Shown here: positions 905 through 20,523 of the stretch, piece by piece
Layout of the letters: each line of letters opens with the position of its first letter
Position numbering within the stretch: the first letter of the stretch is position 1
IMG/VR virus record: IMGVR_UViG_3300044641_005765
Span: 1-20,564 of that record
DNA length: 20,564 nt
DNA from: a virus
Strand: one strand, 5' to 3'
The notes under the pieces: model-generated
Database searches by the model: none
Told to the model about the DNA's origin: nothing
Seen by the model: the letters and a program-made list of their open reading frames with translations, nothing else
Made by a program: the position numbers and the translations under genes

Positions 905-908
905 ATTA

Positions 909-3050: not shown

Positions 3051-4164
3051 TCAATGTATCCTTTATAATTTTACCAATATTTTCATGTGAAAATTGTTCG
3101 GCATATTTTATTCCAATAGATCTATCAATGATATTTCTATTATCATAATAGTATCTCATAGCCTTTTTAATTTCTGATTCGTCTGGTTGAAACCACTCTT
3201 CTCTACCAGTAAATATGTGCGGAAAAGCTGGATCAGAGTGATTACAAATTGACTGTGAGCCATTAATCAACCATCCAGTTGCCTTGTTGTTTTTGTCAAT
3301 AAATTCTTTTGTTCCACCTTCATTGCTACAGATTGGCGTTTTTCCATAGCACATAGCTTCAAATGCTGGTATTGACCAGCCCTCTCCGTGAGATGGGCCA
3401 ACAAAACAATCGCAAGATTGATGCAGTGAGTGAATTTGATCAAATGTCATATCATTAGATATAACTATCTCTGAATGATAATCATTAATATTTGCATATA
3501 GTCTCATTTCTTTTTTTATTTGAGAACACATGTTATTTACATGTTTTGCCAAATCATTTGGATTAACTCCAGTTTTCTTAACCTTTAGAACTAAGCATAC
3601 TGGCTCATAATTATTAAATTCGGCATGAAAAGATCTTATAATAGATTCTATATTTTTTCTATCGTTCAATTCACCAACATAATAAAATTTAAACTTATGA
3701 TTGTTTGATCCAAAATTTAATCTTCCGAACGGGGTTTTGTACTTGTTAATATCAAATGCGTGTGGTATGACTTCTAATTTACTTTCTGATATTCCATCAT
3801 TAATAAGATTTGCTTTTAAGTCTGAATTTGGAACCCACACAAAGTCCATAGCATCAAGATAGTCTTTCCAAATATTATATTTTAATGTGTTGGACTCACC
3901 GGCGAAATAAGCAATATTCTTTTTAAACTTTTTGGTAGAAACTAAGTGGTGAGGAAGAACGTGCTGTATACAATAGTCAATATTGTCAAGATTATTTTTT
4001 TCTAAATTTAATATTCTTGTATCTATTTGTGATTCAGTATTTGTTAATTTTATATTTCTACAAGCAATATCAACATTATTACTAGCAATAGACAGTATAT
4101 TATTAATTGCAGCATTTGACCATCCACTTGCTTCTTTATAATGACCTATATATAAAACTTTCAT
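3043..4164 (-). CDS. GT-B glycosyltransferase (GT1/GT4 family)
   Basis: The protein has 373 residues from the ATG at 4164, which overlaps the previous stop as ATGA; the frame is open to 4218, but the extra 18 residues (QQKKLLGTKE...) are poor sequence and GGAGG sits 13 bases before 4164. It begins KVLYIGHYKEASGWSNAA, a typical GT-B first strand and acceptor loop. A linker VWVPNSDLKANLINDGI (109-125) and LEVIPHAFD (130-138) precede the donor domain FKFYYVGELNDRKNIESII. The EX7E motif is complete (E261, GWSIPAF, E269), followed by YGKTPICSNEGG. The enzyme should be an active retaining glycosyltransferase in the cytoplasm. Substrate is unknown. It belongs to a run of three GT-B genes. Confidence 0.9.
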   Translation of the reverse strand: MKVLYIGHYKEASGWSNAAINNILSIASNNVDIACRNIKLTNTESQIDTRILNLEKNNLDNIDYCIQHVLPHHLVSTKKFKKNIAYFAGESNTLKYNIWKDYLDAMDFVWVPNSDLKANLINDGISESKLEVIPHAFDINKYKTPFGRLNFGSNNHKFKFYYVGELNDRKNIESIIRSFHAEFNNYEPVCLVLKVKKTGVNPNDLAKHVNNMCSQIKKEMRLYANINDYHSEIVISNDMTFDQIHSLHQSCDCFVGPSHGEGWSIPAFEAMCYGKTPICSNEGGTKEFIDKNNKATGWLINGSQSICNHSDPAFPHIFTGREEWFQPDESEIKKAMRYYYDNRNIIDRSIGIKYAEQFSHENIGKIIKDTLND

Positions 4165-5822
4165 CTTATTTTTAATACCTCCGCTCTCTTTTGTTCCCAA
4201 TAGTTTCTTCTGTTGCATAGATTAATCATATTATCATATGCTATATCAAAATTAAACGGATTTCTAGATAAAACACCATCAAAAGCGGCAGAGCTTTCGT
4301 TAAAATACATACCACCAGTTACTGACGTTGTTGTTTTATAAGTTAAATCTCTAATGAGTCTAGCTTCTATAAAAGAATTAATTTTTTCTGGTTCACACAA
4401 AACATCTGTTATTAACCATCTGGCAATATCCTTAATTGGTGTATTTGGTGGTAAATTTTCTGGCTTTTGTTTTGGTGATCTAATTCTTGGCTTAGATTTC
4501 CATCCAATATCATCTGGAATTATATCAATACTATCAAAATAATTTTCCCAAGCTTTTCCACTTTTATCCCACTGATAATGATGTAAAAATAATTCTCTCG
4601 TTTCTTTAGATAATTTTAACCTTTGATCGCTTGTAAGATTAAAAAATTCTATTAATTTTGCTGCTGCTAATTTGTTATCTGGAACAGCCCTATAACATCC
4701 AGTTTCTAGTTCTTTGTATAAGGCTTTTGGCTTAATTGGTATTCCATTTAAATTTTTAATAACACTTTCCATCGCAGAATAATCTGTTGACATTACCGGA
4801 ATACCACAGGCGGCAGCTTCAACTTGAGGCAAACCAAACCCTTCGCAGTTCGCATATTGAACATATATATCAAAGAGATTTATAATATTTGATAGATCGT
4901 TATAGCTAGCACCCTTTTTAACATTTGAAAGAGTTGCACCGTACTGTTTCGTATATGGTGATTGAGTTATAGCACCACGAAATAATGATGGGAATGGTTT
5001 TCCAGTTTGACCACATATATAGGTAAATAATACTTTTGATGACAATTGATATTGTTGTAATAATTCTGGAATATCCCAACCTAAGTCTGGATAACTAGTA
5101 TGGCAGTATAGAAAATATTTAGAACTATCTTCTACAGTGTCTAGTAGCAATCTAAATGCTTCAAATAGATCTGGATATAATTTTCTTCTTTGATTTCTCA
5201 TTACTGTGCCAATTATTTTAGCATCTGGATCTATTCCCATAGTAATTCTATGTTCTTTTTTATTTTCAACTGGAGCATATGCTGCATGTGCTGATGGCGG
5301 TGATATTCCTATGTAGTTTATTTTTCCACCAGACTGCTGCTTTAATACTTCACCAGCCCATTCTGAATATGTTAAACAAGCATCAGCAGATTGATAAGTT
5401 GAAACCCATTGTCTTGCTTGCGGCCTAGCATCAACGGTTGGCATTATGCACCATTTATAAAACTGTCTAAATGGTGATCTTTCTTCAAAATCCAACATCC
5501 AAAAATCACGAATATCACACACAACATCTGGCATAAAATCTAAACACACGGATTCAAACATTAACTCTCCAAACGCGGCAGTTGGAACACTTGCATATTG
5601 TCTCTTTTCTTCTTCGCTTGCATTTTCACTTGGAACAACGCCATAAAATTTCCACGGTGTCCCATATGCCCTCTTATCATTTTTTTCTCCATAAGAAGCC
5701 ATTTCTGCTAATTCATATTTATTAGTACTATGTAAATAGTTTAATATTTCTCTTGTATATGTAGCATATCCAGTATTTAAGAAAGTTGCTTCACTGCAAA
5801 ACAATATGCGCTTTTTTCTCAT
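4161..5822 (-). CDS. GT-B glycosyltransferase with C-terminal extension
   Basis: The protein has 553 residues. I place the start at the ATG at 5822 (MRKKRILFCSEATF) rather than the TTG at 5831, because TTGAGGAT, the ribosome binding site, overlaps the TTG but is well spaced for the ATG. The N-domain opens with RILFCSEATFLNTGYATY, a GT-B acceptor loop. The donor domain carries IIGTVMRNQRRKLYPDLFEA (about 204-223) and the EX7E motif CEGFGLPQVEAAACGIPV (E327, E335). An unusually long loop of about 40 residues (about 268-308) precedes the motif. A final region of about 110 residues (about 440-553) is not part of the glycosyltransferase fold and is unrecognised. It follows ssb directly, so sugar and replication genes share a transcript here. 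Confidence 0.88.
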   Translation of the reverse strand: MRKKRILFCSEATFLNTGYATYTREILNYLHSTNKYELAEMASYGEKNDKRAYGTPWKFYGVVPSENASEEEKRQYASVPTAAFGELMFESVCLDFMPDVVCDIRDFWMLDFEERSPFRQFYKWCIMPTVDARPQARQWVSTYQSADACLTYSEWAGEVLKQQSGGKINYIGISPPSAHAAYAPVENKKEHRITMGIDPDAKIIGTVMRNQRRKLYPDLFEAFRLLLDTVEDSSKYFLYCHTSYPDLGWDIPELLQQYQLSSKVLFTYICGQTGKPFPSLFRGAITQSPYTKQYGATLSNVKKGASYNDLSNIINLFDIYVQYANCEGFGLPQVEAAACGIPVMSTDYSAMESVIKNLNGIPIKPKALYKELETGCYRAVPDNKLAAAKLIEFFNLTSDQRLKLSKETRELFLHHYQWDKSGKAWENYFDSIDIIPDDIGWKSKPRIRSPKQKPENLPPNTPIKDIARWLITDVLCEPEKINSFIEARLIRDLTYKTTTSVTGGMYFNESSAAFDGVLSRNPFNFDIAYDNMINLCNRRNYWEQKRAEVLKIR

Positions 5823-5827
5823 TATTA

Positions 5828-6139
5828 TCAATCCTCAAAATCTTGTTGACAGAAATCAAATTCGTTAATTCTAAATATAATGGAACTATTTTCTTTGGAC
5901 ACATTTCTTGCTGAAGCGTGAACATTTATTTTTGTTCCTTTGATAGCATATTTTTCTAGCGTTTCTGCACCAGTATGCCAAGCTTCGCACTGTAAATATG
6001 TTGGTATTCTACTTTTTTCTCCACTCTTAGTTTTTCTATAAGTGTAGACTACCATCACAAAATCTGCCTTTACAACATCGCCAACCATTGTTATTCTAGG
6101 ATTTTCAACTAGATAACCAGTAAATGAACATATATTCAT
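5828..6139 (-). CDS. ssb: Single-stranded DNA-binding protein
   Basis: The protein has 103 residues, about the size of the OB-fold core plus a very short tail. It starts MNICSFTGYLVENPRI, the SSB pattern of a first strand followed by 'G.L..dP', continues with VVKADFVMVVYT and YLQCEAWHTGAETLEKYAIKG (the conserved 'v.aWg..AE....yl.KG'), and ends in the acidic tail FDFCQQDFED. SSB coats single-stranded DNA at the fork and recruits partners through the acidic tail. Here the tail ends in Glu-Asp instead of the usual Pro-Phe and directly follows the fold, with little linker. A strong ribosome binding site (AAGGAG, six bases before ATG) precedes it. It lies between the DnaE C-half and a glycosyltransferase. 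Confidence 0.88.
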   Translation of the reverse strand: MNICSFTGYLVENPRITMVGDVVKADFVMVVYTYRKTKSGEKSRIPTYLQCEAWHTGAETLEKYAIKGTKINVHASARNVSKENSSIIFRINEFDFCQQDFED

Positions 6140-6190: not shown

Positions 6191-7768
6191 TCAAATTTCA
6201 TGAATCTTGTTTACAATAAAAGAATTATCGTGTTCGCTAATAGATCCACAAAAAATTAAATTATTACCTTCATATAAGACATACTTATATTTATCTTTTA
6301 CTTTTGGAAAAATAATAACACTATCAAGAACGCATGTATCATCTTCTATTGTTAGAAATGACATTGTTTGTCCTTTAGATTCACCCTTTGTTATTTTATA
6401 GTCTGAAACTCTTTGAACATTTGCTACAATACATAAATCTTTACCCCTTTTTCCATTAACAACTTCTTTGCACGTTGTATTTGCGGCAGATGTATCAGAC
6501 GTTTCAACTCTTGTCATACTAACTGGACAACCTAAGAATTTTACTTCTTGATCTATAATCCAACTAACATCATCTTGAAGGTCATATGGAGGATTAATAA
6601 GTAGTTGTATTTCATTTTCTATCACTTGTTTTCTATCTGTTTTACTTGTGCCGCCACCCTCTTTTTTAGTTGGTGCTAAATCTTTCAAGCAGTCTACAAA
6701 AGTTAACCATTTTCTAGTTTGATAGTTTGAGTGTAGCCAAACTTGTTCTGATTTGGTAAGCACTCTATATATATCATAATCATAAAGAGCCTTATTTCTG
6801 GTTATTGTGTCTGCAAAATCTCTAAAAAATCCAATAGACGCTAATGCCTTAAATGCTGCTGAATTTACTTTTGGGCTAAGATATAATAATATTTCCACCC
6901 AATTACATTTATTTATATCTTTACCTAATTCTGATTCAACTTCTTTTATAGCCTCTATTAATTTATCGCCAGTTTTACCAGTTAAACACTTAATGTCCTT
7001 AATACCAAAATATATTTTACCATTCTTAAAGTTAAACTTATCGCTATAATTAGCTAATGATGGAGTTTTAGCCTGTATATCAAATAACTTAGCCTCTGAA
7101 ATTAATTCATAAGTTTCTTGTTGAGGATCTTGCTTTTCTGACGCATGGTACAAATATGATAAGAAAAAATCTTTTGTGTTATGCGCTTTAAAATAAGCAC
7201 TCCAATATGAACAGGCGGCATATGAAACACTGTGAGATTTATTAAAAGCATATCTAGCAGATTTTTCTATCCAGCCAAAGATTTGTTCAGCTTCATCTTT
7301 TGTAACAAGATTAACCTTACTGGCACCCTCTATAAATGATTTTTTAACTTCATTCATTAGGGCAGCATTTTTCTTTCCAATGGCCTTACGGAGAACGTCA
7401 GCCTCCTGTAAATTGAATCCTGCTATCTTCTGTGCTATACGCATGGATTGTTCTTGGTAGACCAGAATACCATAGGTTGGCTTTAAAATTTCTTCTAACG
7501 CTTGATGCAAATATGTTACTTCCTCCCTACCATGCTTTCTGTCAACATAGTGCTGTGTCATGCTTTTCCCATCAACAAAAGCTTTCAAAGTTCCCGGCCT
7601 AATAATGGCAATTAAGGCAGACAATTCTTCAAGATTAATAGGTGCTAATTTCTTTGACCAAGATTTACCAAGATTACTTTCTAGCTGAAAGATTCCTTTA
7701 GTCTTTCCTTCCGCAAATAGTTTCCAAGTCTTATCACAGTTATAATCTATAATAAAATTATTTAACAT
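6191..7768 (-). CDS. dnaE (C-half): DNA polymerase III alpha, C-terminal half (fingers to OB fold)
   Basis: From the ATG at 7768 the protein has 525 residues. Starts at TTG 7798 or ATG 7780 are possible, but GGTGG five bases before 7768 favours that ATG. It picks up DnaE where the upstream half stops: LLxxGKTxGIFQLES (FQLES 27-31), RPGTLK, then YGILVYQEQSM (99-109), ADVLRKAIGKK (123-133) and FNKSHSVSYA (175-184), all fingers-domain landmarks. An OB fold occupies about 444-525. It contains none of the catalytic aspartates, which are in the other half, so it must assemble with that protein to make a polymerase. Combined length is about 1,061 residues against about 1,160 for bacterial DnaE. It overlaps the exonuclease gene by 11 bases, so translation is probably coupled. 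Confidence 0.93.
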   Translation of the reverse strand: MLNNFIIDYNCDKTWKLFAEGKTKGIFQLESNLGKSWSKKLAPINLEELSALIAIIRPGTLKAFVDGKSMTQHYVDRKHGREEVTYLHQALEEILKPTYGILVYQEQSMRIAQKIAGFNLQEADVLRKAIGKKNAALMNEVKKSFIEGASKVNLVTKDEAEQIFGWIEKSARYAFNKSHSVSYAACSYWSAYFKAHNTKDFFLSYLYHASEKQDPQQETYELISEAKLFDIQAKTPSLANYSDKFNFKNGKIYFGIKDIKCLTGKTGDKLIEAIKEVESELGKDINKCNWVEILLYLSPKVNSAAFKALASIGFFRDFADTITRNKALYDYDIYRVLTKSEQVWLHSNYQTRKWLTFVDCLKDLAPTKKEGGGTSKTDRKQVIENEIQLLINPPYDLQDDVSWIIDQEVKFLGCPVSMTRVETSDTSAANTTCKEVVNGKRGKDLCIVANVQRVSDYKITKGESKGQTMSFLTIEDDTCVLDSVIIFPKVKDKYKYVLYEGNNLIFCGSISEHDNSFIVNKIHEI

Positions 7769-8438
7769 ATAATCCACCATTGGCAAACGCTTTATCAAAT
7801 GTTATATTCTGATAGACTGATCTATGGGTTTTTAATAGTTTAATAAATATATTAGCAGAATCCTTAACATCTTGAAGGGCATCGTGAGCATTTTCTGTAC
7901 TTAAGCCCATTCTTTCTCTTAACGAGTCCATACTAATAGACTTTATAGTTGGATCACCCTCCGTCCACGCAAATACATTATCCATAATATCTATCTTATA
8001 TACTTTACTAAACAGTTTTTGCTGTTCACGTTCAGTGTCCCAAGGTCCAAATTCCTTACACAGTCTATTTATAATATGCATATCGAATCCAATAATATTA
8101 AAACCAACAGGGATTGGTGCAAAGAATGGTTCACCCTTCCAATTATATTGATCAACAAACTTAATAAACTTATTCCACACTGACTTTAAAGATGGGGCTA
8201 GCTCTAGTTGTTCTCTAGTCTTACCAGTTATTTTTAGTGCTTCATCTTGAACTGGATCAAATCCTGCATCAATAGCTTTTTGCTCATCAAATATTGGCTT
8301 AATTTCGCTATTAAATTGTCCCTTCATTGTTAAGCTTCTACCATCTAATGCTATGGCAGCAATTTGAGTTGGTTGAGTCTTATGAGGATTACGTGAGCCA
8401 GTTTCAAAGTCAAATATAATATAATCTCTATTAGCCAT
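7758..8438 (-). CDS. DEDDh 3'-5' exonuclease (DnaQ-like proofreader)
   Basis: The protein has 226 residues. The DEDDh signature is complete: IIFDFETGS (D10, E12), GFNIIGFDMHII (D119) and HDALQD (H185, D190). Such enzymes remove mispaired 3' ends and in bacteria bind the PHP domain of DnaE. Residues about 45-75 (EIKPI...AIDAGFDPVQDEALKITGKT) match the substrate-side strand and 'A..itGit' helix typical of the family. The ATG shares 8 bases with the end of the DnaE N-half (ATGGCTAA), and AAGGA lies about 8-10 bases upstream, inside that gene. Its own end overlaps the DnaE C-half. Position and overlap suggest it is the dedicated proofreading subunit of the split polymerase, although binding has not been shown. 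Confidence 0.93.
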   Translation of the reverse strand: MANRDYIIFDFETGSRNPHKTQPTQIAAIALDGRSLTMKGQFNSEIKPIFDEQKAIDAGFDPVQDEALKITGKTREQLELAPSLKSVWNKFIKFVDQYNWKGEPFFAPIPVGFNIIGFDMHIINRLCKEFGPWDTEREQQKLFSKVYKIDIMDNVFAWTEGDPTIKSISMDSLRERMGLSTENAHDALQDVKDSANIFIKLLKTHRSVYQNITFDKAFANGGLYVK

Positions 8439-10041
8439 GTATAGTTTCCTTATTTTGTATAAACATTAATTTATCTAAAAGCGATAGGCCCAATACGTCA
8501 AATTTAACATGACCTAAACTTTCAAGATCTGACATTTCTAGTCCAGCAATTTTTTCAGATGAGTCACGCTGACTAACCATCGGGCATACATCTTTTAGTT
8601 TGTGTTTTGATATAACCACGCCAGCAGCATGTTTTCCCTGTGTTTTAAACGTTCCTTCAATCTTAATTGCTTGATCAAAATATTCAGCATAATCACCCTC
8701 AAGTTTTCCATCATTATTAATATGGCAAAAATCTCTTAATTCATTAGGATTATTGATTAACGCCCACCTAATAATAGATCTATTATCATCATCCATATCT
8801 GCTAGCTGGTCAGATATTTCTGCTTCATTGGGTATATTCTTTGTTATAGTATTCATTTCACCAAAAGAACACGCCTCGTTAATACGCAAAACTTCTTTTA
8901 TAGCACTTCTACCTTGAAGTCTACCAAATGTAATCATTTGACTAACATGATCATGACCATATTTATTCTTTATATATAACAAAACATCATCACGCCTTTT
9001 TGCTGGAACGTCCATATCAATATCTGGCAATGATATGTGGTCAGCACTATTTCGACCAGCATTATAAAATCTTGAAAATAGTAAATCAAATTCTAATGGG
9101 TCAATTTTTGTGATACCAATTAAATAAGAAATCAAACAGCCAGCAGCCGAACCTCTGCCGGGACCAGAAAGCCACCCTTGATCATTTACATATTTGATGA
9201 TATCTTGTACAATAAGAAAATATCCAAACAAATTAGCATCTTTAATCACATTGAATTCTTCATCAAAACGTTCAGCATATTTTTGCTTATCTTCTGGCTT
9301 TGATACTTTGCCAGATTGAATTAATAAATTCTTCCAACCATCCCTACAAAGTTGTTTTAAATATTCTTCTTCTGACTCTCCATTTGGGCAAGGAAATTTT
9401 GGTAAAACTGGCTTGCTTAATATATCATATTCTTCACAAGAATCTATGATATTATTTACGTATTTTAAATCATCTATAGATGAATTTTTACTAATCTCTT
9501 CAACCTTATCTTTAGACCAAACACACAGGTCATTATTAAGAAATTGATACTCTAATTCTTTAGATAGTTCGCCCTTTTGTATTTGCTTATTAATTTTAGG
9601 TAGAGTAGTTTTTAGCTCTGAACATAGTAATACTCTATGTAGTGTAGCATCATCCGAATTCACATAATAGCTTACTGGTATTAATTTTATATTATTATTA
9701 ACACTAATCAAGTTATCCTTGGCTAAAATATTATTCCATATATCATTAGATATATTTCCATCGTTATTTATGGATGACACTAGCTTAATTAAGTCGTGCC
9801 AGCCTTTATTATTTTTAGCAAATAATGTGCAATTATCAAACGAGCATCCAATAATTGGCTTTATGCCATGTTTTTTACAAGCTTTATAGAATGAAACAAC
9901 GCCAGATATTGTTTTATAGTCTGCTATACCGCAAGCAACATAACCATTTTGCTTACATTTTAAAGCTAATTCTTCTGGCTTAGAAAAGCCTTTCAGCAAG
10001 CTATAATGAGTATAATTTTTTAATGGACACCAATTCAACAT
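8431..10041 (-). CDS. dnaE (N-half): DNA polymerase III alpha, N-terminal half (PHP and palm)
   Basis: The protein has 536 residues. The PHP domain (1-about 210) opens THYSLLKGFSKPEELA and has GIADYKTISGVV, where active PHP enzymes carry His residues (HxH; DH), so its metal site looks degenerate. The palm contains GPGRGSAAG (293-301), PDIDMD with catalytic D340 and D342, GRLQGRSAIKEVLRI, KHAAGVVIS (470-478) and the third catalytic Asp, D515, in VKFDVLGL. It ends 21 residues after D515, just before the fingers domain, which is encoded separately 660 bases further on. All three catalytic aspartates are here, whereas nucleotide-binding fingers are not. GAGG precedes the ATG, immediately downstream of a terminator hairpin. 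Confidence 0.94.
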   Translation of the reverse strand: MLNWCPLKNYTHYSLLKGFSKPEELALKCKQNGYVACGIADYKTISGVVSFYKACKKHGIKPIIGCSFDNCTLFAKNNKGWHDLIKLVSSINNDGNISNDIWNNILAKDNLISVNNNIKLIPVSYYVNSDDATLHRVLLCSELKTTLPKINKQIQKGELSKELEYQFLNNDLCVWSKDKVEEISKNSSIDDLKYVNNIIDSCEEYDILSKPVLPKFPCPNGESEEEYLKQLCRDGWKNLLIQSGKVSKPEDKQKYAERFDEEFNVIKDANLFGYFLIVQDIIKYVNDQGWLSGPGRGSAAGCLISYLIGITKIDPLEFDLLFSRFYNAGRNSADHISLPDIDMDVPAKRRDDVLLYIKNKYGHDHVSQMITFGRLQGRSAIKEVLRINEACSFGEMNTITKNIPNEAEISDQLADMDDDNRSIIRWALINNPNELRDFCHINNDGKLEGDYAEYFDQAIKIEGTFKTQGKHAAGVVISKHKLKDVCPMVSQRDSSEKIAGLEMSDLESLGHVKFDVLGLSLLDKLMFIQNKETIHG

Positions 10042-12421: not shown

Positions 12422-13282
12422 CTAATTTAGTATTAAATTCTTAGCGTTATTAAATATTATATCTATACTTCCTTGTGGTATTTTGTTTTTAAAATATTCA
12501 TATATATCTATAATCATTTGGTGGTTTGGATCTTTTGTAATTTCTAGCCAGCCAATGAAATAATTCCAAATTCTATCTTCTAATATTAATGGATATTTTA
12601 CCCCGCTTGGTCTTCCAAATCTATGGTTCCATTTAAGAGAAGGCAAACAAATATTTCTACCGCCATTTTTTCTAAACTTTTCTGCTATATAACCTTCTTC
12701 TCCACCAAAACCCCTAAATGATGGATTAATTCCCATCCAAGCAGATTTTTCAAAAGCACATAAGCCCATTCCTTGCATTGGTATATCAAATGGTTCGCCA
12801 TCGCCAGATTCATATAGTTCACTATTAGTAGCCCATACACCATACATATCTCCGCTCCACCTTGGATCAAAATGTGTAGATACGTTATTTAAATCATCAT
12901 ATAATAATGGTCCTTGAACTAGATTTTTACAGTCGGGATTATTGTTAAAATAAGTAATTAAATTAGCAATACCATCTCTTTGTATTAAAACATGGCAATC
13001 TATAATTAATACGTATTTTCCATCAGAATAATCAACTATTTTATATTTATTGAATGAGCTTGGTTTTTCACCATATTCTATATACTTCATATTACTTTGA
13101 CCACTTACAAACATTTTGCATTCTTGTCCGTAAATGCTAGTTGGATTATTATCTAATACAATAAATTCAACATAGTCAGTATTACATAGCTGGTGATACA
13201 TTCTCAAGGCTTGTATAGAGAAAAATACCCCATCATAATCATCATAGGTAGACATACCTATTGTTAACAATTTTTTATGCAT
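12422..13282 (-). CDS. GT-A glycosyltransferase (GT2/GT27-like)
   Basis: The protein has 286 residues. It opens LLTIGMSTYDDYDGVFFSIQ, a GT2-type first strand, and has VEFIVLDNN (38-46) and YVLIIDCHVLI (90-100), where D95-C-H97 stands in for the DxD metal motif. The second half, GMGLCAFEKSAWMGIN then FGGEEGYIAEKF with NGGRNICLP and KWNHRFGRP, follows the pattern of polypeptide GalNAc-transferases (GT27): a DxH metal motif, 'GM.FAI', 'WGGEN.E...R.W..GG' and a C-terminal H. It lacks their lectin domain and membrane anchor. A cytoplasmic sugar transferase is well supported; donor and acceptor are not known. It stands apart from the glycosyltransferase cluster at the other end of the window. Confidence 0.88.
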   Translation of the reverse strand: MHKKLLTIGMSTYDDYDGVFFSIQALRMYHQLCNTDYVEFIVLDNNPTSIYGQECKMFVSGQSNMKYIEYGEKPSSFNKYKIVDYSDGKYVLIIDCHVLIQRDGIANLITYFNNNPDCKNLVQGPLLYDDLNNVSTHFDPRWSGDMYGVWATNSELYESGDGEPFDIPMQGMGLCAFEKSAWMGINPSFRGFGGEEGYIAEKFRKNGGRNICLPSLKWNHRFGRPSGVKYPLILEDRIWNYFIGWLEITKDPNHQMIIDIYEYFKNKIPQGSIDIIFNNAKNLILN

Positions 13283-13294
13283 ATTTTATCCGTA

Positions 13295-14314
13295 TTAACC
13301 GGGACTAGCGTAAAATCCTATCTGGAAACCTTCTTTTGTACACTCTTTAATGGTGTGGTCCATACCATTGTTTTTGAGGTTATTCTCTATATATATACAC
13401 ATGTTTTGATCTGTTCCCGGCCACTTAGTCTTACAATAATGACATAATTTGGCACATTTCCAGTTATCTCTATTTTGAGATATAGGCTGTGGCTTGGCAT
13501 TATTTTTAATATCTTCAAACTTGTTTTTAAGCATTTTTAGGAACTTTTTTTCATCATCTTTATCAAAACACATAGAAAATGGGCCACCGTCTTTGATAAA
13601 AAAGATAGACATAATTGACTGCTTGTACTGGGGGAATAGCTTAGATATTGCATAATTATATAGCAATAACTGCGGATCAGAACATAGTTTTTCATATGTT
13701 TTTTCTTCGCCAGTAGCCCAATCTAATCTTCTGCCGGTTTTCCAATCTATAACTTCTATTATTCCATCAGATGACTCTGTTACCAAGTCAATAGTACCCT
13801 TGATTGCTAGTTGTCCCTTAATCTTTTGACCATTTACTTCGTATTCAAAAAAAGCCCAATCTTCCTCTATTGGTATGTCAAAATGTGGTTCGGCTTCTAC
13901 TATTTTCCTATATCTTGGATCAAATTGACCATCGTTGTAATTTAGGGTATCCGAAATTAACTTATGACAATTATCATTATCTCCCTTGGTGAAACTGTGT
14001 TTTGAGTCTACTGTATAAAATTTAAAACTTAGTTTTAATATGTCATCCACAGTATCTTTACTAAAGAGTTCTGATTTTTTAATATTTATTTTACCCAAAG
14101 CGTCATCTTCTATGGATAAAGTATTCTTTTTAGGATTATCTTGAGTGTACTTTTTAAGTTTAGCTAAAATTTCTAGAACTTTATGAACAATTGTGCCAAG
14201 TTCTGCCTTTTTCCCGCTATCTGGTTGATGCCCCAAAACATAAGTTATAAAATATTGCATCTGGCAATAAGCATAATTATTATAACTAGAAGATCTTATA
14301 TAAGTTATTAGCAT
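13295..14314 (-). CDS. RecB/Cas4-like PD-(D/E)XK nuclease with cysteine cluster
   Basis: The protein has 339 residues from the ATG at 14314 (TAATG junction with the kinase gene); a TTG four codons earlier lies inside the ribosome binding site TTGGAG and is rejected. Nuclease motifs are H44 (GTIVHKVLE), D176 (GTIDLV), the ExDxK-like EVIDWKTGR (E187, D190, K192) and QLLLYNYA (215-222). Cysteines C17, C291, C294 and C306 are arranged as in Cas4/AddB enzymes, where an early Cys and three late ones hold a 4Fe-4S cluster; C287 is extra. Such nucleases resect DNA ends for recombination. No helicase domain is present. Its place after recA, helicase, primase and kinase genes supports a recombination or replication role. 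Confidence 0.88.
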   Translation of the reverse strand: MLITYIRSSSYNNYAYCQMQYFITYVLGHQPDSGKKAELGTIVHKVLEILAKLKKYTQDNPKKNTLSIEDDALGKINIKKSELFSKDTVDDILKLSFKFYTVDSKHSFTKGDNDNCHKLISDTLNYNDGQFDPRYRKIVEAEPHFDIPIEEDWAFFEYEVNGQKIKGQLAIKGTIDLVTESSDGIIEVIDWKTGRRLDWATGEEKTYEKLCSDPQLLLYNYAISKLFPQYKQSIMSIFFIKDGGPFSMCFDKDDEKKFLKMLKNKFEDIKNNAKPQPISQNRDNWKCAKLCHYCKTKWPGTDQNMCIYIENNLKNNGMDHTIKECTKEGFQIGFYASPG

Positions 14315-15054
14315 TATATGCTCCAAATTGTGTTATTTGATTTCAACTTTTCACATAGCTCTTCAATAGTTAAGTTAGAATTATCTATAACAATATCAAA
14401 ATTTGACCAATCAAAATAGTCTTTATCTAATGCAACCTCTGCTTCTGCGTCACTATCAAAAACATTTCTGGTTAATCTAATTACTATTCCGCCAGCCTTA
14501 TGAATAGCTTCAACCTCATTGGGAAATCTAACATCTGGTAGGATCGCTAAGGACGGTTCCTCTAAAATAATCTTTTTGATTGAATATAAAGCCCAAGCAT
14601 CATCTTTAATTTTTCTAATTATCTTAGTTCCAAAGTGTTCTAGAAATTCTCTAACAGTAGGGTTTCCACTCTTTTTAGTTCCGCTTGGTATATTTTTCCA
14701 CTCTAAAGATGTTGGTTTATTTTTATCGTCATTAGACCCATATACATCATGTTGGCTTATACCAAATAGATTAATAGCCATTTCTTTAAGTGGATCTGCA
14801 AAATGATACACTTTAATATAAGGCCATAATTCTTTGCTGGCATATTCTATAAATACTTTATCTTTTCTAGTAACATCTAGTTCACCATATCCGCTATCGC
14901 CGTTAGAGTCTACCGTCTGAACTATAAGTTTACCATTCTCATCTATATAAAAATCACTAACCATATTCATGTTTTTTAAAACATAGCCATTAATATAGTT
15001 AGCTACTGTATTTTTACCAGACTGTTTTTTGCCAGCTATTCCAATAATTTTCAT
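14314..15054 (-). CDS. Deoxynucleoside monophosphate kinase (T4 gp1-like)
   Basis: The protein has 246 residues and phosphorylates dNMPs to dNDPs for DNA synthesis. It starts MKIIGIAGKKQSGKNTVANY with a Walker A loop (GKKQSGKNT, 8-16). Phage dNMP kinase landmarks follow: VYHFADPLKEMA (82-93), PTVREFLEHFGTKIIR (132-147), LAILPDVRFPNEVEAI (169-184) and VIRLTRN. It resembles T4 gene 1 protein and carries an insertion of about 45 residues after the first helix (about 26-75). The ATG overlaps the primase stop (ATGA), with GGGGATGG upstream. It is in the replication operon between primase and nuclease, so its product is made together with the fork proteins. Confidence 0.9.
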   Translation of the reverse strand: MKIIGIAGKKQSGKNTVANYINGYVLKNMNMVSDFYIDENGKLIVQTVDSNGDSGYGELDVTRKDKVFIEYASKELWPYIKVYHFADPLKEMAINLFGISQHDVYGSNDDKNKPTSLEWKNIPSGTKKSGNPTVREFLEHFGTKIIRKIKDDAWALYSIKKIILEEPSLAILPDVRFPNEVEAIHKAGGIVIRLTRNVFDSDAEAEVALDKDYFDWSNFDIVIDNSNLTIEELCEKLKSNNTIWSI

Positions 15055-16070
15055 AAATATCCATCCCCTAATTGTGATATTATAGTTTTCTTTATTTGAT
15101 CTACTGTCATTTCCCCAACATCCTTAGTTGGTATTTTGGGAAAACTCAACTTATACATTCTATTAAGCTGTCTTTGTATTTGCAGCTTAGACTCTCTTCC
15201 GGCTTGATCATTATCTGTTAAGACAACAACGTGTGTTAAGTGTAACTTATTTAACTTAATTTCTTGGTCTTTACTTATAGATTTACCAAATATGCTCATA
15301 GCATTGGTAATTCCTGCTTCGTACAATTTCCAAACATCTCCTTGACCTTCTACAATGAATATGCATTTACTCTTATTGACTTTATCTACTGCTCTATGAT
15401 AGTTATAAAGAAGCCCAGTTTTCACAAAACCTTTTGGATAAAATAAAAATTTTGGCGACTTATATTCTTTTATAGATCTACCTATTATGGCTACAATATT
15501 TTTTCCAGAATCATCATGAATGGGTATTACTGACCTGTCGAACATTTTTGATTTAGGGTTAGCACAATCGCCAACCCCAAAATACTGTAAAGTTTCTGGT
15601 AAAAATCCCCTATTAATAAAATACTTTGATGGATATGTTAAATCTTCCATAACTATTGGGCTATATTCTATTGCATCGTTAGATTCTTTAAAAGATGCTA
15701 CAAGCTTGGAAAATTCATCAGAATCATTTATTGCTGTATCCTGTATGATGTGATCATGTTTAATTTTAATTAATTCACAAGCCCACCTAAGAGCTTTAGA
15801 GAAGCCAATATCTTCACCCTCAATGTTAGATAAGGCTCCGCGAATTAAACCTATAATATCATTTCTATATTGGTGCTGACAGTCTCTAGTCCAACACTTC
15901 CATATTCCCTTATCTAAGGAGAATGAGAATGCCCTTGGGTTATCGCTATTATTATGAACTGGACAAGTAGAATATACATTATCCCCGAAAACTTCATACT
16001 TCATACCAAGTTTGTTAAAAATCAATTCATATTTTGAATTAAGTTCTTTTTTAGTTATTTGTAAGTTCAT
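15051..16070 (-). CDS. DnaG-type DNA primase (CHC2 zinc finger and TOPRIM)
   Basis: The protein has 339 residues. The zinc-binding domain has C36-P-V-H39 and C59-W-T-R-D-C64, the CHC2 pattern. A short core follows, with YPSKYFINRGFLPETLQYFG (146-165) as in DnaG ('yl..RGl..e.i..F.iG') and VIPIHDDSGKNIVAIIGRSI. TOPRIM metal residues are E241 (IFIVEGQGD), D286 and D288 (LTDNDQAG). It makes RNA primers for the lagging strand. The protein stops after TOPRIM and lacks the C-terminal helicase-binding domain of full-length DnaG (about 580 residues), so its contact with DnaB must differ. The start overlaps the helicase gene by 20 bases. Confidence 0.92.
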   Translation of the reverse strand: MNLQITKKELNSKYELIFNKLGMKYEVFGDNVYSTCPVHNNSDNPRAFSFSLDKGIWKCWTRDCQHQYRNDIIGLIRGALSNIEGEDIGFSKALRWACELIKIKHDHIIQDTAINDSDEFSKLVASFKESNDAIEYSPIVMEDLTYPSKYFINRGFLPETLQYFGVGDCANPKSKMFDRSVIPIHDDSGKNIVAIIGRSIKEYKSPKFLFYPKGFVKTGLLYNYHRAVDKVNKSKCIFIVEGQGDVWKLYEAGITNAMSIFGKSISKDQEIKLNKLHLTHVVVLTDNDQAGRESKLQIQRQLNRMYKLSFPKIPTKDVGEMTVDQIKKTIISQLGDGYL

Positions 16071-17511
16071 CTTGTTTTATTTTATTTAAAGCGTCCGAAT
16101 CAATTAATCCCGTATCGCCAACTGGCTGATTTTTAAATTCGTTCCTAGTTTTAAGTTCCCTTAACTTGGCATGTGATCCGCTCATAATCATATTTATATA
16201 ATCTCCATCATCTAAACCGGCACCGTGCCTAGAAACTATAGGTACTAATTTTCTATTACCAGCATTTGGACCATCTTCTGCTAATTCTTCTGGAGATTTA
16301 ATTTTAAATATTGAGAATGATGTGCATAACCATATCAATCTATCCGATCCAGAAACCGCATCAGTACTTTCTTTAGTTATGCCGTCACGATTAAGCTGAA
16401 CAAATGATAAGCATGGTATATCTAATTTAACGCACAGATTATGCAATGATGTAATTTGGAATCCTAAAGCTTGATATTCCTGTATATTATTAGTTATAGA
16501 ATTAGATGACATTAATTTTAAATAATCATAAATGATAAGACAGTCATTAGTTTTTCCAGTGTCATCACTTTTAACTTCTTGCATCACCCATCTTCTAATT
16601 AAATTTAATATTTGTTCAAAGGGCTTACCGGCAACGCTAATGTAGCTGTATGGTATAGATTCTATCTGTTTAATAGCATCTAATACTTTAGCGTGTTTTT
16701 CTTTATCATCAATGAACTTACCGGTAGCAACTTCATTAATAGGAACACCGCTAATATTAGATATTAATCTATTCAAATGGTCTTCTTTGGACATTTCAGT
16801 ATCTAGCATTAATACTGGAACTCCACGCTTAGACACATTCAGTGCTACATTATCAGCGAATACGCTTTTACCAACCTTGGGCCTAGCTGATACTAGATCA
16901 ACGCACTTGCGTCTTAATCCACCACCTATAGCTTCATCGTATTTATTGAAGCCAGTTGGAATACCTATTATATCGCACTTATTGTTTTCAAGAAATGTTA
17001 CATAATCTTGAATGTTCTTACCAATTTTCTCTGGATTTTCACCACCGTCATCTTCTCTTAAGAAATCTATTACTGGATTTTCTAATATTTGTATAATCTC
17101 ATTGATAGATTCAGTACCAGTAATATCATCAACATCTTTATGTATTTTAGATGTTAACTTTTTGATCTTACGTGCAAATTCAAACTTCTTGATCTGTACT
17201 GCAAAACTGAATATATTATCTTTACTGATTGGGAAATCAAATAATGACTTTATATATTTCAGTTCTTGTGGAGTGTTAAGACTGTCTGACAAATTTAACT
17301 GAGTGGCAGATGATAATATAGATGGTATATCTATCTTTTGATCATTAGCAATAATCTTTTCTATGCACTTATATAGAACTTGATTGTTAATATGACCAAA
17401 AGTTTCACTGCTAATCAAATTAGATACAGCAATATATCCATCTATTCCATGCTGTAGTATGCCAGCTAGCACGGCTCTTTCTGAACCTATGTCAGTTAAT
17501 TTTGTCTCCAT
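16051..17511 (-). CDS. Replicative DnaB-type helicase
   Basis: The protein has 486 residues from the ATG at 17511, which comes one base after the zinc-ribbon stop; the frame is open to 17589, but the extra 26 residues fall inside the upstream gene and DnaB homology begins at GSERAVLAGILQHG. The N-terminal helical domain spans 1-about 150. The RecA-like motor begins GIPTGFNKYDEAIGGG, with Walker A ARPKVGKS (209-216), DTEMS (237-241), Walker B LIIYDYLKL (D329), the QLNRD sensor (Q372) and SRHGAG with the arginine finger (R428). Such helicases form hexamers that unwind the fork. A loader is not evident, although the zinc-ribbon and helical proteins upstream are candidates. Confidence 0.93.
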   Translation of the reverse strand: METKLTDIGSERAVLAGILQHGIDGYIAVSNLISSETFGHINNQVLYKCIEKIIANDQKIDIPSILSSATQLNLSDSLNTPQELKYIKSLFDFPISKDNIFSFAVQIKKFEFARKIKKLTSKIHKDVDDITGTESINEIIQILENPVIDFLREDDGGENPEKIGKNIQDYVTFLENNKCDIIGIPTGFNKYDEAIGGGLRRKCVDLVSARPKVGKSVFADNVALNVSKRGVPVLMLDTEMSKEDHLNRLISNISGVPINEVATGKFIDDKEKHAKVLDAIKQIESIPYSYISVAGKPFEQILNLIRRWVMQEVKSDDTGKTNDCLIIYDYLKLMSSNSITNNIQEYQALGFQITSLHNLCVKLDIPCLSFVQLNRDGITKESTDAVSGSDRLIWLCTSFSIFKIKSPEELAEDGPNAGNRKLVPIVSRHGAGLDDGDYINMIMSGSHAKLRELKTRNEFKNQPVGDTGLIDSDALNKIKQDELTNN

Positions 17512-17512
17512 A

Positions 17513-17935
17513 TTACTTACCAGTACACCTATTGCAACGATGAAATTCTCCATACACAAACTTAGGATCAGCTTTAAATACTTTGCCACAAACGTGACAT
17601 TCTAGATCCACCTTTTTTGCGGCTTCTCTTCGTCTAGGAGTTCGCTCAAACTCTGGAGTTTCTATATCTCTAAACTCGCCGTTATCTACCCAGTTGTTTT
17701 TTCTACCTTTCACGGGTTCGTTTCTCCTATTATTAGTGTTATTATTCTCGACTTTTTTAACTATAAAGTTTTCATCTACTACAACTGAAGATGAATTATT
17801 AATTCTTTTATTTGTTTCTATCTTAGGCTCTGGCTTTGGTTGTAATAGCTGTTCATCCTTCTGATTCATGAGTGCTTCCATTAACTTAGTTTTTTGCTCA
17901 CTTGATAGTGAAGCTAAGAAATCATCAAAACTCAT
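17513..17935 (-). CDS. Zinc-ribbon protein with disordered middle
   Basis: The protein has 140 residues. A short N-terminal helix (SFDDFLASLSSEQKTKLMEA) leads into a charged, Asn-rich and probably disordered middle (about 30-105), then a C-terminal zinc ribbon: C113-H-V-C116 ... C134-N-R-C137. The basic stretch RTPRRREAAKK before the ribbon suits nucleic-acid binding. It is the gene immediately before the helicase, separated by one base, and overlaps the helical protein gene as ATGA. I do not recognise the family. A single-strand DNA or helicase-loading adaptor is plausible from position and layout, but this is inference. A transcription-type zinc ribbon is the main alternative. Confidence 0.75.
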   Translation of the reverse strand: MSFDDFLASLSSEQKTKLMEALMNQKDEQLLQPKPEPKIETNKRINNSSSVVVDENFIVKKVENNNTNNRRNEPVKGRKNNWVDNGEFRDIETPEFERTPRRREAAKKVDLECHVCGKVFKADPKFVYGEFHRCNRCTGK

Positions 17936-18408
17936 TGTCTTTTCCCCTTTTCTAACAGTATATCGGCCTTGCGTTTTAATTCATATACTTTTCCATCTAA
18001 AGATTGCAGTCTAGCTTCCGCTACCTCTCTCATGTTTTCTAAAGATGCCGCATAAGAATTACTTTGTGATAATATATGTTTTTTAGATTCGTGCTTAGTA
18101 TATTGACCAAACTCATCACTATATTTAACAATCAATTTTTCCATTTGATCATTACACCAATTTAATGCAACTTTATTTTTATTAATTTCATCTTGAATAT
18201 ATGTTGCGTATCCATATATTAGATATGCCGCATCAAATAATTCTTGCTGATTATACTTTTTTAATTGATCTAAAGATAAATCAGAAACTAATAAATATTC
18301 TTCTCTAAAAGAAGCAAATTTAGTATTACTAGAGTTAATATAATCATTTATAGATGATATATAATCAGCTAGTTTTTCAGACGCTTTTAATTCTTTTTCG
18401 CCACTCAT
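17932..18408 (-). CDS. Helical protein of unknown function, possible recombination mediator
   Basis: The protein has 158 residues from the ATG at 18408; a GTG two codons earlier is possible. It is almost entirely helical with no enzyme motif. Charged heptad-like stretches occur at about 1-35 and from about 105 to 158 (SLENMREVAEARLQSLDGKV, YELKRKADILLEKG). The middle, DAAYLIYGYATYIQDEINKN, looks amphipathic. Size, helical content and place between recA and helicase genes recall T4 UvsY, the mediator that loads UvsX on SSB-coated DNA, but I see no sequence match that proves it. It overlaps the endonuclease gene by 32 bases and the zinc-ribbon gene by 4, so these three products are probably made in step. 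Confidence 0.65.
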   Translation of the reverse strand: MSGEKELKASEKLADYISSINDYINSSNTKFASFREEYLLVSDLSLDQLKKYNQQELFDAAYLIYGYATYIQDEINKNKVALNWCNDQMEKLIVKYSDEFGQYTKHESKKHILSQSNSYAASLENMREVAEARLQSLDGKVYELKRKADILLEKGKRQ

Positions 18409-18799
18409 CGTCACTTTCTGAATATTTTAGGGTTATCAATTCGATTCCATTCAACTCACACCAGCTTATCTTATCATCGTCACGAACTTGTCCTTTTATG
18501 AAGTCTGCTTTGCTTCTATGAAAGAATGGATTGTACTCATAGTGCTGCTCTCCATGAACCTCAACTCCTAGTTTAATAGAAGGAATGTAAAAGTCAAGGT
18601 ATAGCACAGATTTTCTGTGCAAGGCTGTACTTCCCGGCAACTTTACTTCTTCTAATATTCTATAACTATTGTAGATTTCTTTTAGTAAGTTTCTAGCCCG
18701 TACATGATATTTAGATCGCTTACGCTTGTCATCATCAAAAACATCATATCCTGTTAGATTCCATGTGTATTCTTTGCCATTTATTCCAGTGATTTTCAT
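18377..18799 (-). CDS. Vsr-like / EDxHD-type endonuclease
   Basis: The protein has 140 residues. The core LYLDFYIPSIKLGVEVHGEQHY (D69, E80, H82, H86) followed by QVRDDDKISWCELNGIELITL matches small PD-(D/E)XK-type nucleases of the Vsr and EDxHD homing groups: an Asp, then Glu-x-His(Gly), then a basic or acidic helix with D..K..W...G. A basic N-terminal region (KRKRSKYHVRARNLL, 25-39) could bind DNA. Family members nick mismatched or specific DNA, or act as free-standing homing enzymes. In this place, between recombinase and helicase genes, a junction- or end-processing role is equally likely. The start overlaps the FkbM stop as ATGA. Confidence 0.78.
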   Translation of the reverse strand: MKITGINGKEYTWNLTGYDVFDDDKRKRSKYHVRARNLLKEIYNSYRILEEVKLPGSTALHRKSVLYLDFYIPSIKLGVEVHGEQHYEYNPFFHRSKADFIKGQVRDDDKISWCELNGIELITLKYSESDDEWRKRIKSV

Positions 18800-19404
18800 A
18801 AATTATTTTTAGCGTAAAATGCGTCACCCCAAGTTGTCCCAGCCATATTAGTTTCTAGTCTGTTAAATCCAAAATCTCTTAAAAAAGCGTCAACCTCATG
18901 TAACTTTGCACAGTCTGTATATACGTTATCAATATTGACTTCGGATATTATGTAATCAATATGATTTAATGTCTTCGTAGCACCTTTAAGTACTTCAAGT
19001 TCATAACCTTGAACATCCATATTAATAAGATTGAACTTATCAGTTTCATATGAGTCTAGCGTTGTAACATCAATCTCTTCTTTACCTTCAAATATAATAT
19101 TTGGATATTGCTGCAAATGTAATTCTGGTTCTAATATTGAATTTGATTGACCTAAATTTGCAGTTTCTATGTTCATAAAAGCAGTTCCATGATAGTTCCC
19201 TAAAGCTTTATTGATACATAATTCTTTTGGAACTCTAGATACCAATTGCTGAAAATTAGATTTTGCCGGTTCAAAAAAAAGCATTTCATTAATTTGTAAA
19301 GATTTATATAAATCATACTCTTCTCCAAAATGTGCGCCAATATGCACAACTCCAGAAATTTTAAGATCATATTTTTTTACTAAACTGTGTAAATTTAATA
19401 ACAT
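18796..19404 (-). CDS. FkbM-family methyltransferase
   Basis: The protein has 202 residues. Class I methyltransferase motifs are GVVHIGAHFGEEY (18-30, the SAM loop), LFFEPAKSNFQQL (42-54, with acidic E45), then VTTLDSY (113-119) and INMDVQGYELEVLKGA (127-142), the diagnostic FkbM 'D.(E/Q)G.E..vL.G' segment. The family methylates oxygen on sugars or natural products, and phage copies usually lie near glycosyltransferases. Here it is instead placed between recA and the endonuclease. Its ribosome binding site, AAAGGAGGT (19414-19422), is made from the last codons of recA. Substrate is unknown. Confidence 0.9.
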   Translation of the reverse strand: MLLNLHSLVKKYDLKISGVVHIGAHFGEEYDLYKSLQINEMLFFEPAKSNFQQLVSRVPKELCINKALGNYHGTAFMNIETANLGQSNSILEPELHLQQYPNIIFEGKEEIDVTTLDSYETDKFNLINMDVQGYELEVLKGATKTLNHIDYIISEVNIDNVYTDCAKLHEVDAFLRDFGFNRLETNMAGTTWGDAFYAKNNL

Positions 19405-19410
19405 ATAACA

Positions 19411-20523
19411 TTAACCTCCTTTGTTTAGCTCTTTGATTTTATGATAAATGAATGTAGAAATTGAATTATTACTATTTAAAAATTCAGCTACATTGTTTAC
19501 GCCTTGAAACTTAAAAAATCTTTCTATTTCATCTGGAGTCTTTCCTATTTTATTTTCTTCTAGCACTTTGGAAACAATAGGATTTTCTGGCTCATCTACC
19601 GCACATTGTATAGTATACCAAGCACCAGCGGCTTTAATTAATCTAAACTCACAAGCTATTTGTATAACTTCTTGTATTTCATCTACCCCAATACCATATC
19701 TAATCCAACCTTCCGCTGTACTATTAGGTCTACCGCCAGCATTAGAAGTTTTAATAGACCAATTTGCAATTTGACCAACGTGTTGACCAGTATCCTTTGG
19801 TACTTGCCATTTTCCTCTATGGGTAATAACCATATTAGTTCCAGCTTGATATTGCAACATGTTACCACAGTCTGCCATTTTTTGTGGGGCATATGGAGAA
19901 CCGCCGGTATTAGCTATATTATGTGTTATACAAATGAGGATAGTTTTATTTTTCATTAGTGTGCCACTAATACGCTTAAAAAACATTGATAATAGTCTTG
20001 GTAAAGCGTTTCTAACACCAGTTCTAACTTCGCCCTCAAGTTCAACGGCTGGAACCATGTTAGATAATGAGTCAGCAATTATTAAACAGCCGGGATCATT
20101 ATTGATATAGTATTCAGTAATATTTAAAAAGTCTTCTGCCGAAAGAACTCTCTCATCTGTTGATTCTATTATAATAATATTATCAGAGCTTAAATCCTTA
20201 ATGCCATCAAAGTTTTGTTTGGATAATCTGCCTTCAGTATTAATATAAATAACTCTTTTATTCTTTTTCTGACACTTAGCGGCAAAGTGTAAAGCTGTGG
20301 TTGTTTTACCACTTTTTGGATCACCTGTCATAACAACAACAGAGCCTTCCCTTAAGCCGCCGCCAAGGGCTATATCTAAAGCTGGAGAAATACTAATAAC
20401 ATTAAGATTATTGATATTCTGTAAAACTTCAGTACCACTTCTTACTACATCTCCATATTTGCTAACCACAGAATTACTAACTTCATCTTCGCTAAATTTA
20501 TTAGCCTTCTTGACTTTGCTCAT
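19411..20523 (-). CDS. RecA/UvsX-like recombinase
   Basis: The protein has 370 residues. After a charged 30-residue N-terminus, the ATPase core opens ISISPALDIALGGGLREGSV, with Walker A GDPKSGKTT (67-75), catalytic Glu97 (YINTEG), Walker B CLIIADS (146-152) and the loop-2 region ICITHNIANTGG followed by an ADCGNMLQY stretch. The C-terminal 100 residues are less conserved and may bind DNA or partners. The order of motifs fits the UvsX/RecA group of phages; the short N-terminus and lack of RadA-type zinc finger argue against RadA. It forms filaments on single-stranded DNA for strand exchange. GAGG lies five bases before the ATG, and a TATAAT lies about 36 bases upstream. Confidence 0.92.
   Translation of the reverse strand: MSKVKKANKFSEDEVSNSVVSKYGDVVRSGTEVLQNINNLNVISISPALDIALGGGLREGSVVVMTGDPKSGKTTTALHFAAKCQKKNKRVIYINTEGRLSKQNFDGIKDLSSDNIIIIESTDERVLSAEDFLNITEYYINNDPGCLIIADSLSNMVPAVELEGEVRTGVRNALPRLLSMFFKRISGTLMKNKTILICITHNIANTGGSPYAPQKMADCGNMLQYQAGTNMVITHRGKWQVPKDTGQHVGQIANWSIKTSNAGGRPNSTAEGWIRYGIGVDEIQEVIQIACEFRLIKAAGAWYTIQCAVDEPENPIVSKVLEENKIGKTPDEIERFFKFQGVNNVAEFLNSNNSISTFIYHKIKELNKGG

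What the first reader, a model, noticed from the sequence alone, without database searches (positions are those of the whole stretch)
6191..10041. Replicative polymerase split in two, with its proofreading exonuclease gene in the split
Seen: the DnaE N-half (8431-10041) ends 21 residues after its third catalytic Asp (D515). A complete DEDDh exonuclease (7758-8438) follows with an 8-base overlap, and the DnaE C-half (6191-7768) resumes just before the fingers motif FQLES with an 11-base overlap. Almost nothing of the polymerase is lost, because the break is in the linker between palm and fingers. All catalytic aspartates are on one protein, and the fingers and OB fold on another. Known: cyanobacterial DnaE is split at FNKSHS by a trans-splicing intein, and PolC carries an exonuclease inside its PHP domain. 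Neither describes this: no intein sequence is present and FNKSHS is intact. Inference: a three-subunit N-exo-C polymerase assembled co-translationally, possibly with the exonuclease helping to join the halves.
Basis: partly seen in the sequence, partly recalled or inferred. Interest (0 to 1): 0.8.

Follow-up and report, generated by a model that had tools for sequence, protein, structure and literature searches.

The report
Split phage replicase with exonuclease gene between
A large, uncultivated group of phages makes its only detectable DNA-copying enzyme as two separate half-proteins, with the gene for the error-correcting exonuclease lodged between the two halves, and this layout has been kept in hundreds of different genomes, so it is a real and working arrangement rather than a sequencing artefact.

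Summary
Confirmed. The window encodes a C-family (DnaE) polymerase in two genes, N-half 10041-8431 (PHP, palm, all three catalytic Asp) and C-half 7768-6191 (fingers to OB fold). A complete DEDDh exonuclease gene (8438-7758) lies between them, with 8- and 11-base overlaps. It is not an assembly join. All three genes, in the order N-exo-C, were found in 327 fetched loci (194 distinct exonuclease sequences) from many independent metagenomes. These span at least four lineages whose proteins are only about 35-50% identical. The split sequences form one clade apart from all continuous DnaE tested. Catalytic residues are invariant and dN/dS is about 0.03-0.09. Fourteen of 14 virus contigs of 132-231 kb carry one palm, one fingers and no PolA or PolB. 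The split DnaE is therefore the only replicative polymerase detected. No intein or intron lies at this split. Several relatives add a second break with a split intein. In Alicyclobacillus phage KKP_3916 a group I intron and a homing endonuclease sit at the same palm-fingers junction, which suggests an origin. Most likely the halves assemble non-covalently with the exonuclease as proofreader; a bridging role is untested. I found no prior description in the papers I could search. New variant of a known kind.

The parts
8431..10041 (-). DnaE N-half: PHP (metal motif degenerate), palm with D340, D342, D515; ends 21 aa after D515
   Evidence: alignments A2/A4 with invariant PDIDxDVP and KFDxLG; AlphaFold mean pLDDT 89.8, pTM 0.86; Foldseek to E. 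coli, Taq and M. tuberculosis DnaE, E 1e-27 to 1e-32
8431..8438 (-). 8-base overlap of the N-half end and the exonuclease start
   Evidence: the same 8-base overlap in 37 of 75 close-clade sequences scored
7758..8438 (-). DEDDh 3'-5' exonuclease (proofreading subunit) gene between the polymerase halves
   Evidence: Pfam RNase_T 1e-15; PHROG 192 'DNA polymerase exonuclease subunit' 1.9e-26; D, E, D, H, D invariant in A3
7758..7768 (-). 11-base overlap of the exonuclease end and the C-half start
6191..7768 (-). DnaE C-half: fingers (FQLES, YQEQ, RKAIGKK, FNKSHS) and C-terminal OB fold
   Evidence: Pfam DNA_pol3_finger 1.2e-46; A1/A5; AlphaFold mean pLDDT 85.0, pTM 0.65; Foldseek to DnaE and OB folds
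5828..6139 (-). SSB gene next to the C-half, conserved neighbour
   Evidence: Pfam SSB 5.1e-6; follows the C-half in most relatives of the 25-locus synteny set
13295..20523 (-). Rest of the conserved replication module: RecA/UvsX-like 19411-20523, DnaB-like helicase 16051-17589, primase 15051-16070, dNMP kinase 14314-15054, RecB-type exonuclease 13295-14326
   Evidence: PHROGs; the same order upstream of N-exo-C, as far as each locus reaches, in 25 loci of four lineages

Best explanation
This is the main replicative DNA polymerase of a large uncultivated phage lineage, encoded as three separate proteins from one operon. The N-half carries the PHP domain, the palm and all catalytic aspartates. 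The C-half carries the fingers and OB fold. A DEDDh exonuclease encoded between them supplies proofreading. The two halves most likely fold separately and associate non-covalently through the palm-fingers interface to rebuild one DnaE active site, with the exonuclease bound as the epsilon-like subunit. Shown by sequence: the split, its position, its conservation, purifying selection on all three genes, and that it is the only polymerase detected. Inferred: non-covalent assembly, activity, and the order of events. The split probably began as an intron or homing-endonuclease insertion at the palm-fingers junction in a common ancestor, after which the junction stayed open.
For: The N-exo-C order is present in 327 loci with 194 distinct exonuclease sequences. 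The split sequences form one clade, SH-aLRT 100. Catalytic residues of the polymerase and exonuclease are invariant. Pairwise dN/dS is 0.03-0.09 for N, exo and C in the pairs divergent enough to estimate it. Fourteen of 14 contigs of 132-231 kb have exactly one palm, the fingers, and no PolA or PolB. A fixed replication module surrounds it in all lineages. Both halves model with high confidence and match DnaE. Almost nothing of the chain is missing: the profile match resumes at E. coli residue 584. No intein and no intron is at the junction, while inteins and introns elsewhere were detected by the same methods. Shine-Dalgarno-like sites precede N and exo starts above shuffled background, with a weaker excess for C. 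For the origin: group I intron plus homing endonuclease at the same junction in Alicyclobacillus phage KKP_3916.
Against: No biochemistry and no multi-chain structure prediction was possible. The C-half model is less certain overall (pTM 0.65) and its first 5 residues are low-confidence. One MAG contig (L259) has a free C-half with no N-half or exonuclease in the 4.2 kb upstream, so adjacency is not absolute. The records are metagenomic, and none of the 14 was rated at least 90% complete. No clamp (PF02767) was found in the 14 contigs, so the rest of the holoenzyme is unclear.
Confidence: 0.8

Rival explanations
1. The halves are joined after all, by an unrecognised split intein, an RNA intron containing the exonuclease gene, or ribosomal bypassing, giving one continuous polymerase.
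For: Relatives do carry a bona fide split intein with a free homing endonuclease at GPGRG|SAAG in the same gene, and in-frame inteins in the C-half. A phage outside the clade has a group I intron at the same junction.
Against: The N-half ends 6-30 residues after the palm motif with no IntN, and close-clade C-halves start only a few residues before the fingers with no IntC. No Rfam intron match was found in the window. Inserted genes differ in number and kind between lineages. N and exo have Shine-Dalgarno-like sites above background, the C-half weakly.
Confidence: 0.08
2. The exonuclease is a structural bridge: the polymerase is an obligate heterotrimer in which the exonuclease holds palm and fingers halves together, and gene order has been kept for that reason.
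For: The exonuclease stays between the halves in every lineage that could be checked, although other genes invade both junctions. Within the window clade it is better conserved (77-94% in most relatives) than the N-half (64-82%).
Against: Operon co-expression explains the same order. Across distant clades the exonuclease is the least conserved of the three (about 35% against 45-50%). No interface could be predicted with these tools.
Confidence: 0.3
3. Assembly error or a recently broken, decaying polymerase gene.
For: The window is a metagenome-derived virus record of 20.6 kb.
Against: Identical layout in hundreds of independent assemblies, uniform protein lengths (exo about 224-235 aa) and strong purifying selection.
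Confidence: 0.01

Closest known systems
Split minimal DNA polymerase III alpha of group 2.2 jumbo phages (Iyer et al. 2021, PMC7824862)
   Same: C-family polymerase in two phage proteins
   Different: There a minimal version, encoded by distantly located genes and accompanied by a family B polymerase. Here a full-length DnaE with PHP and OB fold, adjacent genes with the exonuclease between, and no other polymerase found.
Cyanobacterial DnaE split intein
   Same: DnaE encoded in two genes
   Different: Split at the FNKSHS region and rejoined by trans-splicing; here FNKSHS is intact, the break is in the palm-fingers linker and no intein is present (site of the cyanobacterial intein from own knowledge).
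Fractured genes with split inteins and free-standing endonucleases (Dassa et al. 2009, 10.1093/nar/gkp095; not held, known by citation)
   Same: A phage gene broken by an insertion; this arrangement is present in relatives at GPGRG|SAAG
   Different: At the N|exo|C junction there are no intein halves and the resident is the proofreading exonuclease, not a mobile endonuclease.
Phage ribonucleotide reductase gene split by a homing endonuclease into two functional peptides (cited in PMC10448857)
   Same: A gene split without splicing that still works as two peptides
   Different: There the inserted gene is a homing endonuclease; here an ancient split of a polymerase with a functionally related enzyme between the halves.
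PolC of Firmicutes
   Same: DEDDh exonuclease encoded together with a C-family polymerase
   Different: In PolC the exonuclease is inside the PHP domain of one polypeptide; here it is a separate gene between palm and fingers (PolC layout from own knowledge; weaker structural match to PolC than to DnaE).
Cellulophaga phage phiST/phi13:1 DnaE, annotated as two adjacent genes
   Same: Phage DnaE in two adjacent ORFs
   Different: Broken within the palm, before PDID, with no exonuclease gene between; its DEDDh exonuclease is about 4.6 kb upstream.

Membership tests
C-family DNA polymerase (DnaE) | PHP, palm, fingers and OB domains with three palm Asp | tested here: met
   divided over two proteins
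C-family DNA polymerase (DnaE) | One polypeptide | tested here: not met
C-family DNA polymerase (DnaE) | Polymerase activity | not testable with these tools
   Needs purified proteins
DEDDh proofreading exonuclease (DnaQ/epsilon-like) | RNase_T fold with D-E-D-H-D | tested here: met
DEDDh proofreading exonuclease (DnaQ/epsilon-like) | Binds the polymerase and the clamp | not testable with these tools
   No complex prediction; no clamp gene found by PF02767
Cyanobacterial-type split intein DnaE | IntN and IntC flanking the break | tested here: not met
Fractured gene with split intein (Dassa type) | IntN, free endonuclease gene, IntC | tested here: not met
   Not met at the window's split; present at another site in relatives L057, L073, L167, L305
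Gene split by a group I intron | Catalytic intron at the break | tested here: not met
   No intron in the window; positive control in L358
Jumbo-phage split minimal Pol III (Iyer 2021) | Minimal halves at distant loci beside a PolB | tested here: not met
   Adjacent genes, full domains, no PolB
PolC | Exonuclease inserted in the PHP domain of one chain | tested here: not met

The most novel reading that the evidence does not exclude
A three-subunit replicative polymerase in which the proofreading exonuclease is needed to hold the palm and fingers halves together, so that polymerisation depends on the presence of the proofreader.
Probability: 0.25. Interest if true: 0.85.

Novelty: new variant of a known kind. 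Interest (0 to 1): 0.64.

Why it matters
A replicative polymerase broken between palm and fingers is not expected to be tolerated, yet this lineage appears to have relied on one for a long time, with no other polymerase detected. It offers a natural test of how a polymerase active site can be rebuilt from two chains, whether proofreader and polymerase assembly are coupled, and how mobile introns, inteins and homing endonucleases turn one essential gene into permanent multi-subunit machinery. It also gives a clear marker (N-exo-C) for a large uncultivated phage group that standard annotation would call fragments or partial polymerases.

Tried and rejected
Assembly artefact: rejected. Intein or intron joining at this split: no evidence. 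Search for a continuous close relative: none in the clade. The only continuous hit from the later viral scans, L370, is a 1235-aa DnaE whose N part is 24% identical to the L189 query, with a separate downstream exonuclease; it was not placed on the tree. INPHARED isolates: no match at 60% identity or more, so no cultured member was found. The N-half and exonuclease of the L259 MAG were not recovered; that MAG gives only the likely host DnaE. The beta clamp domain was sought in 14 contigs and not found. Literature searches found no description of this layout; the library holds open-licence papers only and Dassa 2009 was not held.
Full report
Observation. The window carries, on the minus strand, a DnaE N-half (10041-8431, 536 aa), a DEDDh exonuclease (8438-7758, 226 aa) and a DnaE C-half (7768-6191, 525 aa), with overlaps of 8 and 11 bases. 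Pfam gives PHP plus the complete palm domain for the N-half, a complete RNase_T domain for the middle protein, and the fingers domain for the C-half. Against the full-length phage DnaE family PHROG 405, N covers the profile to position 607 and C resumes at 626. Profile searches of solved structures place the resumption at E. coli residue 584, and the N-half match ends at Taq residue 634, shortly after its third palm Asp. Almost nothing of the chain is missing. All three catalytic Asp (D340, D342, D515) are in the N-half and are invariant in relatives.

It is not an artefact. Scans of viral contigs with each of the three proteins and with alignments fetched relatives from many independent metagenomes. 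In 327 loci, with 194 distinct exonuclease sequences, all three genes are present in the order N-exo-C (details). Some contigs were fetched by more than one scan. Most exceptions are contig-end truncations; three more only have a longer exo/C overlap than my filter allowed, or a match that starts earlier. The two real exceptions are L259, a free C-half in a Phycisphaerales MAG without N or exo in the upstream 4.2 kb, and L370, which carries a continuous DnaE.

How deep it goes. Four lineages can be told apart: the window clade, a clade about 45-50% identical in the polymerase halves and 35% in the exonuclease (L149-L181, L268-L346), a clade that includes contigs binned with a Lokiarchaeota MAG (L189, L190, L371 and others), and a more distant one (L368, L369). 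In a tree of concatenated halves with 20 continuous bacterial and phage DnaE, the 23 split sequences (first three lineages) form one group with SH-aLRT 100, consistent with one origin. The surrounding module RecA - DnaB - primase - dNMP kinase - RecB-type exonuclease - [N-exo-C] - SSB - glycosyltransferases recurs in 25 loci drawn from all four lineages, as far as each locus reaches; the SSB was not detected in the Loki-bin and L369 lineages with the window's SSB as query, though L369 has an SSB-like gene upstream of N.

It is under selection and is the only polymerase seen. dN/dS is about 0.03-0.09 for N, exo and C in the pairs divergent enough to estimate it. Fingers motifs and exonuclease D-E-D-H-D are invariant. 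In 14 virus contigs of 132-231 kb there is one palm domain each, the fingers domain each (interrupted by an intein in one), and no family A or B polymerase, while the controls rang as expected. No beta clamp was found with PF02767. None of these records was rated at least 90% complete, so absence is not proof.

What the junctions tell. In about half of the window clade the N stop and exo start overlap by 8 bases. In others, HNH or endonuclease VII-type genes (PF02945), FkbM-type methyltransferases or other genes sit between N and exo or between exo and C. In other lineages a 60-70 aa gene of unknown function lies between N and exo. The junctions are therefore hot spots for mobile genes, yet the exonuclease is retained between the halves throughout the clade. 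N and exo are preceded by Shine-Dalgarno-like sites above background; the excess is weaker for C.

Inteins and introns. The window's junction has neither: no IntN after the N-half, no IntC before the C-half, and no Rfam intron match. The same methods do find such elements nearby. L057, L073, L167 and L305 have a split intein (CFLPD... IntN...HN IntC) with a free-standing endonuclease gene between its halves at GPGRG|SAAG, the arrangement described as fractured genes; in those phages the polymerase comes as three pieces plus the exonuclease. L327 has an in-frame intein in its C-half. In Alicyclobacillus phage KKP_3916 the DnaE gene is cut by group I introns; one of them (41.7 bits, E 2e-8, below Rfam's gathering score), followed by a gene with homing-endonuclease-associated repeats, sits at the palm-fingers junction. 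This is outside the clade but shows how the break could have started.

Structure. AlphaFold models of the two window halves are confident (mean pLDDT 89.8 and 85.0; pTM 0.86 and 0.65) and match DnaE structures from E. coli, Thermus and M. tuberculosis. The N-half ends in a helix right after the strand that carries D515, and the C-half begins with a short low-confidence tail, so the break leaves both domains whole.

Mechanism. The best-supported reading is non-covalent assembly of palm and fingers halves into one active site, with the exonuclease as proofreading subunit. In the window clade the PHP metal motif is degenerate (LKNYTHYSLLKG in place of HxH; DY in place of DH), while the distant clade keeps LHCHS and TDHG, so the separate exonuclease is the likely proofreader in the window's phage. 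Whether the exonuclease also holds the halves together is open: conserved position fits, but operon co-expression explains it as well.

Prior work. Iyer et al. 2021 (PMC7824862) describe a split minimal Pol III alpha in some jumbo phages, encoded at distant loci beside a family B polymerase; it differs in the tested respects except being split. MIJ3 has a PolB split by an intein (PMC6892783). A phage reductase split by a homing endonuclease into two functional peptides is cited in PMC10448857. I found no description of the N-exo-C layout in the searchable library; subscription papers and Dassa 2009 could not be read.

Verdict. A real, ancient and widespread split of a replicative polymerase with its proofreader's gene in the break; new as an arrangement, but a variant of known split phage genes. 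Interest 0.64.

Noticed in passing
L057:4581-7345, L073:5350-7315, L167:3987-7063, L305:1-2813: Second break of the same polymerase at GPGRG|SAAG by a split intein with a free-standing Phage_endo_I/TnsA-like endonuclease gene between the intein halves.
   Followed up: partly
L358 (OQ846916.1, Alicyclobacillus phage KKP_3916) 1-5992: DnaE gene in several pieces with two group I introns (RF00028 at 1715-2048 and, below gathering score, 2512-2740) and two homing endonuclease genes; the pieces are annotated only as hypothetical proteins.
   Followed up: partly
L182 (KC821625.1, Cellulophaga phage phi13:1) 4680-8280: DnaE split in two adjacent genes at another place (before PDID in the palm), with extra tails at the break that are not clear intein sequences.
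   Followed up: no
L259:4293-6584: Free C-half in a Phycisphaerales MAG with an in-frame mini-intein near FNKSH and an SSB gene downstream, without N-half or exonuclease upstream.
   Followed up: partly
L170:7038-7217, L369:4996-5208 and similar: A conserved 60-70 aa protein with an SCC...NA-like motif encoded between N-half and exonuclease in lineages other than the window clade; no Pfam match.
   Followed up: partly
C-half N-termini of L149-L181 and L369: C-halves of distant clades begin with a conserved (F/Y)xCGCxF segment before the fingers that the window clade lacks.
   Followed up: no
L157 and L171, between exonuclease and C-half: DUF1559-like prepilin genes and a ThyX-like gene, which from general knowledge hints at planctomycete-type hosts for part of the distant clade.
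   Followed up: no
L327:7680-10076: In-frame intein within the fingers region of the C-half (PF14890).
   Followed up: partly
L365 (exonuclease in a Flavobacteriales MAG): An in-frame TGA was reported inside the match to this exonuclease.
   Followed up: no
window 170-5831 and 12422-13282: Several glycosyltransferase-like genes flank the replication module and recur next to it in relatives.
   Followed up: partly
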